From contig NZ_CP070506.1 in assembly GCF_016925675.1 (NCBI RefSeq), positions 5,268,501 through 5,332,500 on the forward strand: DNA of 64,000 nucleotides, read 5' to 3'. The notes beneath the pieces are model-generated. The model saw nothing but the letters and a program-made list of their open reading frames with translations, was not told the origin of the DNA and did no database searches. The first letter of the stretch is position 1. Every line of letters starts with the position of its first letter. Positions 35,691 through 42,188 of the stretch are shown here, piece by piece. The translations under genes and the position numbers were made by a program. This stretch comes from Pseudomonas hygromyciniae (GTDB taxonomy: Bacteria; Pseudomonadota; Gammaproteobacteria; Pseudomonadales; Pseudomonadaceae).

Positions 35691-35722
35691 GAAACCCCCG
35701 AGGCAAAGCCACCGGGGGTTCC
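35691..35722. terminator. GC-rich hairpin left of the recombinase module
   Basis: GAAACCCCCG and CGGGGGTTCC form an 8-9 bp stem over a loop AGGCAAAGCCAC that can itself pair (GGC/GCC). Neither side has a long T run, so termination would be weak. It marks the left side of the recombinase module; 35596-35690 holds the tam promoter. Confidence 0.55.
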
Positions 35723-35907
35723 TGGTGTTACGGGATAGTCCGGGCCAAGGTGGCCTAGAACGGTTATGAGTACCAGACAGTCAGCAAGACTAACGACTGA
35801 GTGGGCTTAAGCTCATATCTTATTGGGCATTGACGGATCATCATTACTGACGCCCCGGGCCTCGTAGACACCTCCATGCCTTAAAATGAGGCCAATCAGG
35901 AGGTGCC

Positions 35908-36184
35908 ATGAGCAACCCGCGTTATCCCGAAGAATTCAAAATCAAGCAGTCAATCAAGTGACTGAAAAGAAGCTGCCTGTCGCTGAGGTAGCCGCCCGTC
36001 TCGGCGTGTCGACGCATAGCCTCTATGCCTGGATAAAGCGCCACAGCAAACCTCAAGAAGAACGGCAGCAGGATGATGATCAGCACGCTGAGCTACGTCG
36101 TCTGCGAGCGGAACTCAAGCGCGTCACTGAAGAGCGAGACATATTAAAAAGGCCGCCGCGTACTTTGCCAAGGAGTGCGGCTGA
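35908..36184 (+). CDS. IS3 transposase OrfA (helix-turn-helix)
   Basis: ATG 35908 with a strong AGGAGGT ribosome binding site. MSNPRYPEEFKI then, after a missing base near 35944, AVNQVTEKKLPVAEVAARLGVSTHSLYAWIKRH (helix-turn-helix) and the leucine zipper ELRRLRAELKRVTEERDILK. Ends AAAYFAKECG at TGA 36182-36184. The run before the overlap has five As where six are expected for the OrfA frame. Confidence 0.87.
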
Positions 36185-37054
36185 AGTACGCCTTTATCAA
36201 GCAGCGCGCGGGCGACTATTCGATTCGACGGCTTTGCCTGACGCTGAAAGTCCATCCCAGCGGTTATTACGCCTGGCTGTCTGAGCCGCAATCTGTACGC
36301 GCTAAAGACGACCAGCGACTGCTGGGTTTGATCAAGCATTCCTGGTTGGAGAGCGGTGGCGTTTATGGCTATCGCAAAATCCACGACGATCTGCGCGAGG
36401 TCGGTGAGGATTGTGGTCGTCATCGTGTGGCGAGGCTGATGCGTCTTGAAGGTCTGCGTTCTCGGACAGGTTATCGACGCCGCCCTGGAAAGTACGGCGG
36501 TAAGCCAGCAGTCGTCTCACCCAATTTGCTGAAGCGCCAGTTCGATGTTGTGGAACCCAACAAGGTTTGGGTAACCGACATCACGTACATTCGTACGTAT
36601 GAAGGCTGGTTGTATTTGGCGGTGGTACTGGATCTGTTTTCTCGGCAGGTCGTTGGCTGGTCAATGAAGTCGCAGATGACCAGTGATTTGGCTATTGATG
36701 CGTTGTTGATGGCGGGTTGGAGGCGTAAACCGAAGCAAGAGGTGATGGTTCATTCCGACCAAGGCAGCCAGTACAGCAGCTCCGATTGGCGCAGCTTTTT
36801 GAAGGCAAACAATTTGGTTGCCAGCATGAGTCGCCGAGGCAACTGTCATGACAACGCCGTGGCCGAGCGCTTTTTCCAGCTTCTGAAACGGGAACGGATC
36901 AGCGAAAAATCTACACCACGCGGAAGATGCTCGGAGTGATGTGTTTGATTACATCGAGATGTTCTACAACGTAAAACGCCGCCATGGTTTCAACAATCAG
37001 CTGTCACCGGTAGAGTTTGAAAAGCGTTACGCAATGAGCTTGCAAGGTGTCTAG
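36175..37054 (+). CDS. IS3 transposase OrfB (DDE integrase catalytic domain)
   Basis: The frame overlaps the end of OrfA and starts LKYAFIKQRAGDYSIRRLCLTL; it is normally fused to OrfA by -1 frameshifting. The rve catalytic domain shows D in WVTDITYIRTYEGWLYLAVVLDLFS, D in HSDQGSQYSS and E in NAVAERFFQLLKRE, the DDE triad. A shift near 36910 joins IYTTREDARSDVFDYIEMFYN and the end SPVEFEKRYAMSLQGV at TAG 37052-37054. Apparently an intact, possibly active element once sequence errors are allowed for. Confidence 0.88.
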
Positions 37055-37072
37055 AGAATCCGGGGCGATTCA

Positions 37073-38845
37073 GACTCCAGCGGTCGGCACCGTAGATACC
37101 GTCTTCTTCGCCGCCTGAGCCTTGCCAAGCTGAAGGCGGATACTGTCACGATGACTTTGAGTCTTTCGAGCTTGTTGGCATCACCCTTAACGCAGACTTG
37201 CTCAGTGCAATTCAGGCAGTCACGGTGCTTCTGACACGGAAGCATTGAATAGTCATGCACGCAGAAGCCGAAAATTGTGATGTGGGCAATTCCACCCCGT
37301 GGTGTCAAGGTCAGCCAACGTCACTGGCGCGTTCTCCTGATCTTGGTCAACGCGACACCAATACCCGCTTCCCTGGCCATCTCTACGTGCTCATCGGCTG
37401 TCATGTGGTTGTAGGTAGCGTTCTGCTGGATGTTGGCTCGCCCTGACCATTTAGCAATGTCCAATTGGCCTAAGCTGCCGCGCTGAGCCAGCGTATTCAG
37501 GTAGTGCCGAACTTGATGAGACCCCATAGAAATAGGGGTTCCATCAGGATTTTTATAGCCATTCCGTTCCCAGATGCTGCGCTCTTGGCCATCGATGTAG
37601 TTGATGTCGGTGGTGAACGTACTCTCCCGGAGACCAGACAACGATCGGTCGTGCTGGATAATCCATCCTCAGTTCGTTTTGTCTAAAACAGCAGAGCGCC
37701 TCGGAATACTTGATGTGCCGCTCTTTGTTGAGCCACGGCCACCCTTCGGCAGCTTGCTGTGCATGAAACCGTTCAGAAACCGCAATGTGACGTAGCCGTT
37801 CTCTGCATAAAAGGCCGGAAATGGTTTGTAGGATTTCATTCCCGCTTTCAGCTTAGCGGTAGCTACCGCCGCTACGTCACTGGATCTAACCCCAGAGCAA
37901 GGCATGCTTGGGTGTCACTTAGAGGGTGATCTTCACCGAAGTTAGGACAGTTTTCATGGCGATAGAACTTATCCGGATGGCTTTCAAGCCACTTCGAGCA
38001 TGCGCCCCGGCTCGGACATTTCTGTGAGACGGCGAACCGCTTCCTCAGCCGTTTGCACCAGAACAGTAGGAAGCCATTTAATATCAGATTCATATCCCTT
38101 CCTGCGTAAAGCCTGAGCCCGAGACGCTTTACGCCTTTGCTGTCGGTCTCCCGGTGCAGGCAGTTGAGGGGAAGGTCTTGTACTTCGCTGATGCGAGATG
38201 GAGCGCACATGCATAGCGCAAAGATTGATGTAGTGAAGCGATCTCGCGCGCCCTGAAGGTCATTGCTGAACATCTCCGCTATTGCCTGAAGCGTTCGCTC
38301 TGGAGGCATTTTGTCCTCGCGCCGTTGCTTGCCGACGGAATCAGTACGATGAATCTCCTTGGGTTTTTTACTGGGTCTTCAGGGAAATTGGTGCTGGGAT
38401 GATTCGGCTTTCATTGAGGAATTCAACGAGTTTCGCCGCTGATGCCCGCTTGATATGAACTTGCGCCGTAAGTAAACGCTACCTTGGCGGTTCATCAAGA
38501 CACTGATATCGGTCTGCGTGATGTCAGCACAGCCTTTAATTTCAAGCAAAGCAGCTTCAACGCAGCGAATGGCCTTGAACTCATTCTTCAGCTTCCTAGG
38601 GTTATGGCTTGTGATAACGAACGTATGCCTTGGCGAATGGAATGATGCCTGCGTCCGGAAGCTGCGCTTCGCTATAGCCACGAGACGGAGCACCTTTGAA
38701 GTTACCTACACCTGGCCACGTATCGTCGTACAATCCAGATCGGCACCAAACACTGTAAGCCTTCTCGGCACATGACGATGAACTCATCAAGGTTCTGCCG
38801 GCTGGCAGCTTGGGCCTTCGGAACAAACTGAAAGATGTTAGACAT
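37073..38845 (-). pseudogene. tyrosine recombinase 3 of the trio, interrupted by the IS3 element
   Basis: ATG 38845-38843 (MSNIFQFVPKAQAASRQNLDEFI) overlaps gene 2's stop by eight bases (ATGTCTAA). Catalytic pieces: Arg in MCAPSRISEVQDLPLNC (~38200), HQVRHYLNTLAQRG (HxxR, ~37520), LDIAKWSGRANIQQNATYNHM (Trp in place of the second His, then the Tyr, ~37440). After the active site comes a cysteine-rich tail, CVHDYSMLPCQKHRDC and LNCTEQVCVKGD (37190-37270). The frame is cut by the IS at 37073; a short continuation lies left of the IS, ending at 35813 or 35764 depending on the frame. ~590 residues before the IS. Several one-base shifts besides (near 38420, 38590, 37890, 37690, 37640, 37325). Confidence 0.78.
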
Positions 38846-40377
38846 TGGCGAGATCGCTCTTCATGGCATTGCAACGAGTTACTACATCACTAACTGCAAG
38901 AATGAGTCGGTCATTGACGGATGCGATCTTCAGGTCGCCTGTGCCTTCATAAACGCTGTCACGCTCAAGAATTAGCTGATCTAAGACATCCTCATGAGGT
39001 CCATCCAGCCAAGGCTGAAAATGCGAACAGGTGTAACAGGCGACCGGGGCCAGAGCTCCACAAAACCCATAGCTCCCGCAGCTACCGACGTTGCCACCTG
39101 CACTGCAATTCGCTTGAACGATCCCCCACGGCGAGCCTTGGCCTCATCAACGACAAGGACGCCTTGGAACGCTTGCGCAAGTGGAGCTAACTGTAGCGCT
39201 ACAGCTTTATCGATGCGCTCAACGATCTCGGGAATGTTCCTCACATAGACACCAGCATTTTGGATGTCGGAGGATCAAGCGCTTCGCGATGATGTATTCG
39301 CCCCTGCCCCCTCGCGAGGTTGGTCCCGGAGGGTGTAGCGGAAGCGATATGGGTTGATGTTGGTGTAAGCGCCAGTTCGGTGGCTGATAACGGCGATCAC
39401 TTCTTTAACGCTCGACATCGAGTAACCGATCTCATTCACGCGGGCATGCAAAAATCTCCTGCCAGTTGCGACTCAAGATCTTTGTTCGTGTCGTAGTGTT
39501 TGAAGGTCGGAAACAGTGGCAGCTCGGACACAAGATTCTGCCGGATAGATCCACCGAGAAGATTAGAAATAACTGATTTGACATGGCCTACCTGCTCCTG
39601 AAGAAGGGTCCACAAGTCCTCAACAACTTCAAACTTAGAGAACGACTGACGCCACCCCGTGCTTTTGCTTACCACGCGGAAAATTGATGAAGTAACGCTG
39701 CCCAACAGGGATAAGGTCTTTAATCTTCAATGCTGCAATTTGAGCTGGGCGCCTGCCAGTCATAGCTAAAATCATCGCGAAGCAAGTTTGTCCAAATCTA
39801 GTTTTCCAATCGCATAACAATCAAGCACGCCTGAGACAATAGCTTCCATCTCAATATCTGTAAGCGGCCCATTTTCTGGACACATCGATTGTACTGCGTA
39901 GCCTTTTTCATTCCCTTTTATCCTCCAGCCCTCCATCATTTTCAGGGTATCGGCGGAGGCTCCAGGATATCCAAGACTGACCCATGTGCGATGAATGCAC
40001 GCAAGAGCTGAGCTCCCAATCAGCATCAGCTATCTGTGGCGATACGAGATCATCGATTCCGACTGAATAGTGGGAGAGAATGAGTTGCTTCAAAATAAGA
40101 TTTGAATCGGCGGTACAGTGACATAGTGTAATGCGCTGAACAGGTTTCTCCATAGATGGCCAAACCTGCCTAAATGTGCGCTTGAAATCATCATTCAGAA
40201 ATGAGGGAAAAGTATCGAGGAAGAATCTGATATCTTTACTCAGCCTCCAATGGCTTGAATATATCTCCACCTCATAGCCATCTTTGGAGACAATGAAGTG
40301 CGCTCATACCGAGCTAGAGCAGCATTATTATTCATGATCATCAGAGGATTTCCCCATGTGCTTTTTTGCAAGCCCAT
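38838..40377 (-). CDS. tyrosine recombinase 2 of the trio
   Basis: ATG 40377 (MGLQKSTWGNPLMIMNNN) shares one base with the stop of gene 1. N-terminal part: YEVEIYSSHWRLSKDIRFFLD, FRQVWPSMEKPVQRITLCH, ADTLKMMEGWRIKGNEKGY. Catalytic half: Arg in AMILAMTGRRPAQIAALKIKDL (~39750), RYFINFPRGKQKHG, NINPYRFRYTL (~39340; Tyr where His is usual, then Arg) and DIQNAGVYVRNIPE (Tyr nucleophile, ~39250). The tail VLDQLILERDSVYEGTGDL and CNAMKSDLANV ends at TAA 38838-38840. ~513 residues. The expected His before the Tyr is lost in a shift near 39280. Confidence 0.78.
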
Positions 40378-41568
40378 CACAGCCTTTCCAGCCGCTTCTT
40401 GATATGGCGCTTGTTATAAATTGACGCTGTGCCAGAAGTTTCACTCCACCCCATCAAGTAAGAGCGGAGTTGTTGTTCTCGCTCAGGGGTTACGCCGTCT
40501 TTATCGCGGCTCCTCGAAAATATGTAGTTCCAATGGTGCCGAAGGGCATGGGTATGCAGACCAGAAAATTCATCGGCTAGAGTCGACAGAGTTGCAATAA
40601 ATTTTCCGAAGCCAGAATTAGAAAGCGGCCAGCCCACAGTCTGTCCTGAACGATGAATCACAAAGATATCCATGCTTACGAGCACCCGGAATCTTGTTGC
40701 GGAATTTGGCGATATGCTCATGGATTCGCTGCATGAGCTCAGGGATCAGAGGAAATGTACGCTCCCGCGTCTTAGCGACTGGCTGATAAGTTCTTGGATC
40801 GCCAGCAGAGTCTGCTCGTCGCACGATCCTGACCGTATTTTTCGCAAAATCGAAGTCTTCACTTCTGAGGTTCAGCAGTTCTCCACGCCGCATCCCTGTG
40901 AGACGAAGAATTGTGAACATCAATGCGTTCCGAAATTGAAGGCCAACGTCGGCAACCGGGTTGGATTCGCTGCCTGGCTTTAGAATTTCTTCAACCATAT
41001 CCAAAACGGAGTCATCCAGATGGGAATCAGATGTGCCTTCTTCAGTTTTATCGCCAATCTTCGGTCGATTTGCTTTGATCTGAGCCACCATGGCATCAAT
41101 TTCCTGCGCACTGGTCTCTGTTACTGGGTGCAATCTGCCTGCAAGAAATCGGACGTACCCAGCGATAACAGTGATTCAGTTGTACTGATTGTCCTGGGCG
41201 ACCCTTCTTCGACGGCCTTTAGGGACGACCTGCTTGTCCTTTGACACATATCTTCAGAGGCTTTTGCATGAAGTCCCGCAAAGAATGATCTCATGACGAC
41301 AAAGCAGCTCGCTCTGCTTAAAACGCGACTCTAGATCAAGGCCGTAGTAACTCTGCCAGGCGCATATCGCCTTGAGCGCCGATAGCGCGTTATTGATAGT
41401 GTTAATGGAAAGCGAGCGCCCACGCATCTCGGCAGTCACGTACAGCGCGGGGTAATAAAGCGGCATGCCGGCGTTATCGACGAGGATAGAAAACCTCTCT
41501 CCTGATTCCGCCTGAAACCGTCTGATTGCTAACTGCATACCCACCTCGAATTCCTTACGTAAATTCAA
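40377..41568 (-). CDS. tyrosine recombinase 1 of the trio
   Basis: ATG 41568 (MNLRKEFEVGMQLAIRRFQAE). SAM-like N-domain: SINTINNALSALKAICAWQSYYG. Catalytic domain: Arg in LRLTGMRRGELLNLRSEDFD (~40890), HTHALRHHWNYIFS (HxxR, ~40545), LMGWSETSGTASIYNKRHI (Trp and Tyr, ~40430). Stop TGA 40377-40379. ~397 residues. Shifts near 41295, 41160 and 40680. First gene of the trio; promoter expected in 41569-41610, an AT-rich stretch ending with the ssb terminator. Confidence 0.85.
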
Positions 41569-41617
41569 GGTAGGAACCTAGTTAAAACACGTCAATTTTT
41601 TTACAACGCGAAAACGA

Positions 41618-41640
41618 AAGCCCCTGCAATGCGGGGGCTT
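41618..41640 (-). terminator. terminator after ssb
   Basis: AAGCCCC TGCAATGC GGGGGCTT hairpin, followed on the minus strand by TTCGTTTTCG. It ends ssb transcription and separates it from the recombinase module. Confidence 0.8.
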
Positions 41641-41676
41641 CCAGAAGAAACTTTACAAAGAAGTCTCTACGGCTCC

Positions 41677-42188
41677 TCAGAAGGGAATATCGTCATCAAA
41701 GCTGTCGAAATCAGCAGCCGGTTGCGGTGCCGCCTGCTGTGGCGCTGGGCGCGACTCACGCTGTGGCTGCTGGCTTGGCTGTGGACGCGACTGCTGTGGG
41801 CGCGGTGCCGATTGGACATGCCGCCCTGGCCCTGTTGGTCGCCCTGTGGACGGCCGCCCAGCAGTTGCATGGTGCCTTGCATATCAACCACGATTTCGGT
41901 GGTGTAACGCTTGATACCGTCTTTTTCCCACTCGCGGGTCTGCAGTTTGCCTTCGATGCAGACCTGCGAACCCTGGCGCGTATTCACCGGCGATCTCTGC
42001 AACCTTGCTGAACATCGATACACGGTGCCATTCGGTTTCTCGACCTTCTGGCCGGTCTGCTTGTCGGTCCATTGTTCGCTGGTCGCCAGACTCAGGTTGG
42101 TCACGGCGTTACCGTTAGGCAAGTAGCGAACTTCGGGATCCTGGCCGCATGTACCGACCAATATGACTTGTTTACCCCCACGGGCCAT
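41677..42188 (-). CDS. ssb: single-stranded DNA-binding protein
   Basis: ATG 42188 ([29 protein letters not shown] after a small shift near 42172). OB-fold blocks [40 protein letters not shown] and [26 protein letters not shown]. The Gln/Pro/Gly-rich linker runs from [16 protein letters not shown], and the acidic tip [11 protein letters not shown], which binds RecO, ExoI and other partners, ends at TGA 41677-41679. ~170 residues. Shifts near 42090, 42035, 41990, 41810 and 41745. Confidence 0.93.

What the first reader, a model, noticed from the sequence alone, without database searches (positions are those of the whole stretch)
35813..41568. Three tandem overlapping tyrosine recombinases forming a cargo-free mobile module
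Seen: three minus-strand genes of ~397, ~513 and ~590+ residues, coupled by overlaps of 1 base (40377) and 8 bases (38838-38845), each with Arg, an HxxR-like block (HALR, YRFR, HQVR) and a Tyr nucleophile block. They sit between the ssb terminator and tam with no other gene. Known: recombinase-in-trio (RIT) elements, Tn554-like transposons and gamma-mobile-trio islands use several tyrosine recombinases. The lengths here, with genes 2 and 3 much longer than RIT proteins, and the cysteine-rich end of gene 3 do not fit RIT well. Inference: this is a recombinase module of the trio/GMT type that either lost its cargo or moves alone.
Basis: partly seen in the sequence, partly recalled or inferred. 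Interest (0 to 1): 0.78.

Follow-up and report, generated by a model that had tools for sequence, protein, structure and literature searches.

The report
Truncated GInt island beside ssb
Three tandem recombinase genes next to a Pseudomonas ssb gene are what remains of a known kind of mobile genomic island (a GInt): an insertion sequence sits where relatives carry the end of the third recombinase gene, the fourth recombination gene and the cargo, so this copy is likely no longer able to move.

Summary
The three recombinase genes are real but are not a cargo-free RIT/GMT module. They are ginA, ginB and about nine tenths of ginC of a GInt (Genomic Island with three Integrases, Bardaji et al. 2017), inserted at the 3' end of ssb. 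Both ends are readable: attL overlaps the ssb stop (~41675-41685) and attR is at 35754-35763, matching an empty site in a relative. Relatives at the same site (two at 92% DNA identity) carry intact ginABCD; four measured islands are 9 to 30 kb. Frameshifts occur at like rates in gin genes, ssb and neighbours, so they are most likely assembly errors. By-products: in the 76 sampled relatives GinC keeps a full tyrosine-recombinase catalytic set (reported missing in GinC), its predicted fold is that of a tyrosine recombinase, and the target is the SSB C-terminal-tip codons. A different, intact, cargo-free four-gene element lies elsewhere in the genome.

The parts
35692..35721 (.). hairpin shared with the empty-site relative G203, so the native ssb-side hairpin, now separated from ssb by the island
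   Evidence: sequence; flank 88% identical to G203 over 210 columns
35754..35763 (.). attR core CCTAGAACGG (hybrid end, right end of the island)
   Evidence: empty site of G203 and attR of relatives
35764..35847 (.). retained last 84 bp of the island (3' end of the GInt)
   Evidence: 85% identical over 92 columns to the right end in G281, weaker match in G136
35848..37072 (+). IS3-family insertion sequence, ISPsy29-like (terminal repeats TGAATCGCCCCGG; the left end lacks two bases)
   Evidence: 93.3% to copies annotated ISPsy29; other copies in the genome fix the ends; rve hit of the 254-aa ORF 36175-36939, 106.6 bits
37073..38845 (-). ginC, about 600 of 671 codons; 3' end missing
   Evidence: DNA match to G198 and G204 starts at 37073
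38838..40341 (-). ginB (506 aa in relatives)
   Evidence: NCBIfam NF041502 for the intact relative
40328..41568 (-). ginA (408-416 aa in relatives)
41617..41640 (.). hairpin inside the left end of the island, likely terminator for ssb
   Evidence: sequence; similar hairpins after ssb in most of the 30 occupied loci printed (by eye)
41675..41685 (.). attL core CCTCAGAAGGG, overlapping the ssb stop at 41677-41679
41677..42188 (-). ssb, target gene (frame broken in this assembly; C-terminal tip codons intact)

Best explanation
The trio is a remnant of an ssb-type GInt: ginA, ginB and most of ginC lie between an attL at the ssb stop and an attR at 35754-35763, and an IS3-family element stands where relatives have the end of ginC, ginD and the cargo, probably after an IS-associated deletion, so this copy is likely immobile. 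The intact ancestor would have integrated by tyrosine-recombinase strand exchange between a circular form and attB, the codons for the SSB C-terminal tip (inferred from the ends and from published tests on another GInt). Insertion gave ssb another stop codon and another hairpin and left the SSB tip codons in place (seen in the sequence). The small frameshifts are most likely assembly errors, not decay (inferred from equal rates in gin and housekeeping genes). That ginD is essential was shown by others in another GInt and was not tested here.
For: Two same-genus genomes match 37070-41580 over its length at 92% and one at 69%, with intact ginA, ginB, ginC and ginD at ssb. Bardaji et al. (PMC5385486, parts 1-3 of 6 read) define GInts by ginABCD, report mutants of each gene unable to excise or integrate, and find six GInts at ssb with attL overlapping its end. 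Both att cores were read off against the empty site in G203 and the right ends of relatives. The IS abuts ginC on one side and the last 84 bp of the island on the other. GinD: none in the own genome, found in 5 of 5 relatives by the same search. gin identity and flank identity disagree (G204 92% against 80%, G136 69% against 84%, G107 66-73% in pieces against 90%), as expected of a mobile unit.
Against: GinD, a defining gene, is absent from the window, so this is not a complete GInt. The IS is repeated in the genome and the assembly is error-rich here, so a collapse that hid ginD and cargo is not excluded. No transfer or excision was tested. Missing target duplication is weak evidence: 2 of the 5 other IS copies examined also lack it (by eye).
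Confidence: 0.9

Rival explanations
1. A recombinase-in-trio (RIT), Tn554-like or gamma-mobile-trio module.
For: Three tandem tyrosine recombinases. A VPA1267-family gene (NF040697, 177.6 bits) follows ginD in relatives; VPA1267 and VPA1270 are Vibrio locus names that I associate from memory with a gamma-mobile-trio island.
Against: RIT recombinases are given as 315-410 aa with 34-bp terminal inverted repeats (PMC10214605, passages); the intact relative has 416, 506 and 671 aa. Relatives have a fourth gene, ginD, and the ssb target of GInts. NCBIfam at E 0.01 gave no gamma-mobile-trio name for GinA-D, though I did not verify that the library holds such models.
Confidence: 0.04
2. The genome really holds a complete GInt here and the assembly collapsed or lost ginD and the cargo at the repeated IS.
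For: The stretch is error-rich (74 deletion events against a relative) and the IS has three other copies at 99% in the genome.
Against: Both flanks of the IS belong to one island, the right flank being its last 84 bp; the IS is only 1.2 kb; ginD is nowhere in the 6.29-Mb assembly.
Confidence: 0.07
3. The frameshifts are true decay of the gin genes (pseudogenes).
For: None of the three gin genes has an intact frame in the window.
Against: Indel events per kb are 9.6, 10.0 and 5.6 in ginC, ginB and ginA, 5.9 in ssb and 8.7 beyond it up to uvrA. ORFs of 300 aa or more cover 25% of the window but 81% of L001; L002, on the second contig, is also low at 33%.
Confidence: 0.06

Closest known systems
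GInt (Genomic Island with three Integrases; Bardaji et al. 2017, PMC5385486), ssb-targeting families
   Same: Order ginA-ginB-ginC, ssb 3' end as target with attL overlapping the gene end, imperfect repeats of about 10 nt; intact relatives add ginD and cargo.
   Different: ginD, the end of ginC and the cargo are absent here, an IS3 element is in their place. GinC of this clade keeps the first Arg and the Tyr reported missing in GinC.
SE (strand-biased circularizing integrative element; PMC10214605, passages read)
   Same: Four-gene recombination module, 6-bp site logic; a cargo-free SE of 6,353 bp is reported.
   Different: Order is intA-tfp-intB-srap; the paper separates SE and GInt proteins by clustering. 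The second element of this genome (L001) may be of this kind; the window's is not.
RIT (recombinase in trio)
   Same: Three adjacent tyrosine recombinases.
   Different: 315-410 aa each with 34-bp inverted repeats (PMC10214605, passages); here 416/506/671 aa in the intact relative, plus ginD.
Gamma-mobile-trio island
   Same: Island with a recombinase core; a VPA1267-family gene may be shared by some ssb-type GInts (recalled link, not tested).
   Different: No gamma-mobile-trio name among NCBIfam hits of GinA-D. The defining paper was not held.

Membership tests
GInt | ginA, ginB, ginC in this order, three tyrosine recombinases | tested here: met
   Order and homology; ginC lacks its last ~70 codons; fold of intact GinC
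GInt | fourth gene ginD | tested here: not met
   Absent from window and genome, present in 5 of 5 relatives searched. Hence filed as a remnant, not as a complete GInt
GInt | site-specific insertion flanked by short imperfect direct repeats | tested here: met
   CCTAGAACGG (35754-35763) and CCTCAGAAGGG (41675-41685); empty site in G203
GInt | cargo of 2.5 kb or more after ginD | tested here: not met
   None in the window; attR-to-ssb distance 9.2 to 29.6 kb in four relatives measured (from positions)
GInt | short AT-rich 3' end | tested here: inconclusive
   84 bp kept; 56% AT for 82 of them against 41% in the window and 49% in the gin genes
GInt | excision as a circle | not testable with these tools
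   needs PCR or reads
RIT | three recombinases of about 315-410 aa, all with the catalytic Tyr | tested here: not met
   416, 506, 671 aa in the intact relative; lengths for RIT from PMC10214605 passages
RIT | 34-bp terminal inverted repeats | not tested
   only direct att repeats were examined
gamma-mobile-trio | GmtX, GmtY, GmtZ homologues | tested here: inconclusive
   no such name among NCBIfam hits at E 0.01, but presence of the models in the library was not verified
Tn554-like | TnpA, TnpB, TnpC homologues | not tested
   no Tn554 sequence was compared
IS3 family (ISPsy29-like) | IS3-type transposase and matching terminal repeats | tested here: met
   orfA frame is broken in this assembly

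The most novel reading that the evidence does not exclude
In the ssb-targeting GInt clade all three recombinases are active enzymes: GinC, published as lacking part of the catalytic set, keeps Arg, Lys, His-x-x-Arg, Trp and Tyr in nearly every sampled member. Three different strand-exchange enzymes plus GinD would act together on one site, the codons of the SSB C-terminal tip, a target so conserved that one element type can settle across Proteobacteria without harming its host.
Probability: 0.4. Interest if true: 0.5.

Novelty: new member of a known kind. Interest (0 to 1): 0.33.

Why it matters
It turns an apparent new trio element into a known but little-studied one, gives its ends, and shows a likely way for a GInt to die: an IS and a deletion remove the fourth gene and the cargo and leave most of the recombinases. 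The GinC result bears on an open question, why GInts need three recombinases and whether GinC cuts DNA. The target result offers a simple reason why unrelated GInts converge on ssb: the attachment site is the coding sequence of the SSB tip.

Tried and rejected
RIT, Tn554 and GMT: see rivals and membership rows. Fixed chromosomal locus: rejected (20 of 398 genomes with a DNA match, own included; empty site in G203). tam as part of the element: rejected, it lies beyond attR. GinC as a non-recombinase: sequence profiles found nothing in the PDB with the 11-row alignment at E 0.01 and one chain at E 0.63 with the 32-row alignment, but the AlphaFold model matches Cre, XerH, Tn1549 integrase and XerA. 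Second element of the genome (L001) as the same family: profile comparison of its gene 2 with GinC and GinB, gene 3 with GinB and gene 4 with GinD gave no real match; gene 3 matched GinC over one 80-residue stretch only (probability 67%). VPA1267 plus RecD2-like pair as a fixed part of the GInt core: both follow ginD in 14 of 58 loci with 3.2 kb or more after ginD, a RecD2-like gene alone in 5 more, so recurrent, not universal; the word helicase does not occur in the main text of Bardaji et al.. Searches for print on ginABCD with ssb gave only that paper; I make no claim that the GinC or tip-codon points are absent from print.

Full report
What was checked. The window lies in a 6.29-Mb genome of two contigs. 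Three minus-strand genes occupy 37073-41568, broken by stop codons. Of nine pieces scanned against Pfam, one piece of gene 1 passes the Phage_integrase cut-off; one further piece of gene 1 and one of gene 2 are below it; six give nothing.

What they are. A DNA search of 398 same-genus genomes with 37070-41580 matched 20, the window's own included; only two candidate places per genome were scored. G198 and G204 match over the whole length at 92%, G136 at 69%. There the genes are intact: ginA 406-416 aa, ginB 506 (G136: start uncertain), ginC 668-671 and a 137-aa ginD. This is the ginABCD operon of GInts (Bardaji et al. 2017, PMC5385486; parts 1-3 of 6 read; passages). That paper reports that mutants of each of the four genes neither excise nor integrate in the GInt tested, that cargo is 2.5 to 70 kb, and that six GInts sit at an ssb gene with attL overlapping its end.

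Ends. All 199 same-genus genomes searched have the ssb region; in most listed matches homology begins at query 55-60, that is window 41674-41679, the ssb stop. In G203 the empty site reads GGTGGCCCTAGAACGGAATATC; the window has GGTGGCCTAGAACGG followed by TTATGAG at the right junction and CCTCAGAAGGGAATATC at ssb. The chromosome side of the right junction is 88% identical to G203 over 210 columns. Right ends of relatives carry the same motif, for example AGAACGG-TTATGAACACCAG in G136; G198 and G204 have variants of the core. From the positions, attR to ssb end is 9.2 kb in G253, 18.2 kb in G107, 25.1 kb in G198 and 29.6 kb in G136; in the window it is 5.9 kb, 1.2 kb of it an IS.

The IS and the loss. 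An IS3-family element, 93.3% identical to copies annotated ISPsy29, lies at 35848-37072. Three other copies at 99%, two full-length ones at 83% and two partial ones are in the genome. It abuts ginC near codon 600 of 671 on one side and, on the other, the last 84 bp of the island, which match the right end in G281 at 85% over 92 columns. Its flanking triplets differ (TAC, GAC); of five other copies read by eye, three have a 3-bp duplication and two do not. A GinD search found nothing in the genome and hit 5 of 5 relatives. The likeliest reading is an IS-associated deletion; assembly collapse at a repeated IS is the main alternative.

Frameshifts. Against G198 the stretch from ginC to uvrA shows 74 deletion events in all, and 3 insertion events within the five features counted; indel events per kb are ginC 9.6, ginB 10.0, ginA 5.6, ssb 5.9, the rest 8.7. 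Stop-to-stop ORFs of 300 aa or more cover 25% of the window, 81% of L001 on the same contig, and 33% of L002 on the second contig, so the contrast is not unique to the window. Equal rates in essential and gin genes point to assembly error. Substitutions in ginC, ginB and ginA fall mostly in third codon positions (69 of 112, 72 of 114, 39 of 76), as under purifying selection.

Past movement. gin and flank identities disagree: G204 92% against 80%, G136 69% against 84%, G107 66-73% in pieces against 90%.

Target. A scan of public genomes with the GinC alignment gave 79 loci (80 best of 88 kept). In 49 of 62 with 900 bp or more upstream of ginA, ssb lies within 900 bp. In the 50 loci read (no minimum upstream length), the SSB ends in DDIPF in 47, DEIPF in 2 and DDVPF in 1; among the 30 printed, a G+C-rich hairpin mostly follows the stop. 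I infer that attB is the tip-coding sequence and that the island supplies the new stop region and hairpin.

Elsewhere in the genome. A different four-gene element (378, 542, 613, 135 aa) lies at L001 7952-13213. Ten of ten gin-free loci compared join its flanks with a 6-base overlap. About 84 bp follow its fourth gene and 186 bp precede its first, so it is intact and cargo-free. Its gene 2 has no Phage_integrase hit, gene 3 has one (29.0 bits). Gene 2 has relatives on 148 plasmid records, the eight listed mostly annotated hypothetical protein, two of them in Vibrio. The order suggests an SE-type element; this was not tested against known SEs.

Verdict. A truncated copy of a known element type.

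Noticed in passing
L001:7952-13213 (G000 C1 about 773951-779212): Intact four-gene recombinase element (378/542/613/135 aa) without cargo, 6-base direct overlap CCACTT at its ends, empty sites in ten of ten gin-free loci compared; possibly SE-type. In G045 a truncated copy sits at the same place, 98.9% identical while the flank is 89.8%.
   Followed up: partly
L027:5621-8352 and relatives: Directly after ginD, a VPA1267-family gene (146 aa) and a RecD2-like helicase gene (~765 aa) recur: both in 14 of 58 loci with enough sequence.
   Followed up: partly
L102:11358-17124 (plasmid pPAD8 of P. aeruginosa, NZ_CP061074.2): A related ginABCD set sits beside a plasmid-borne ssb gene, so the target is also used on plasmids.
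   Followed up: no
window 1-64000: Frameshifts by small deletions run through the whole window: no stop-to-stop ORF above 443 aa, and 25% covered by ORFs of 300 aa or more.
   Followed up: partly
   Followed up: no
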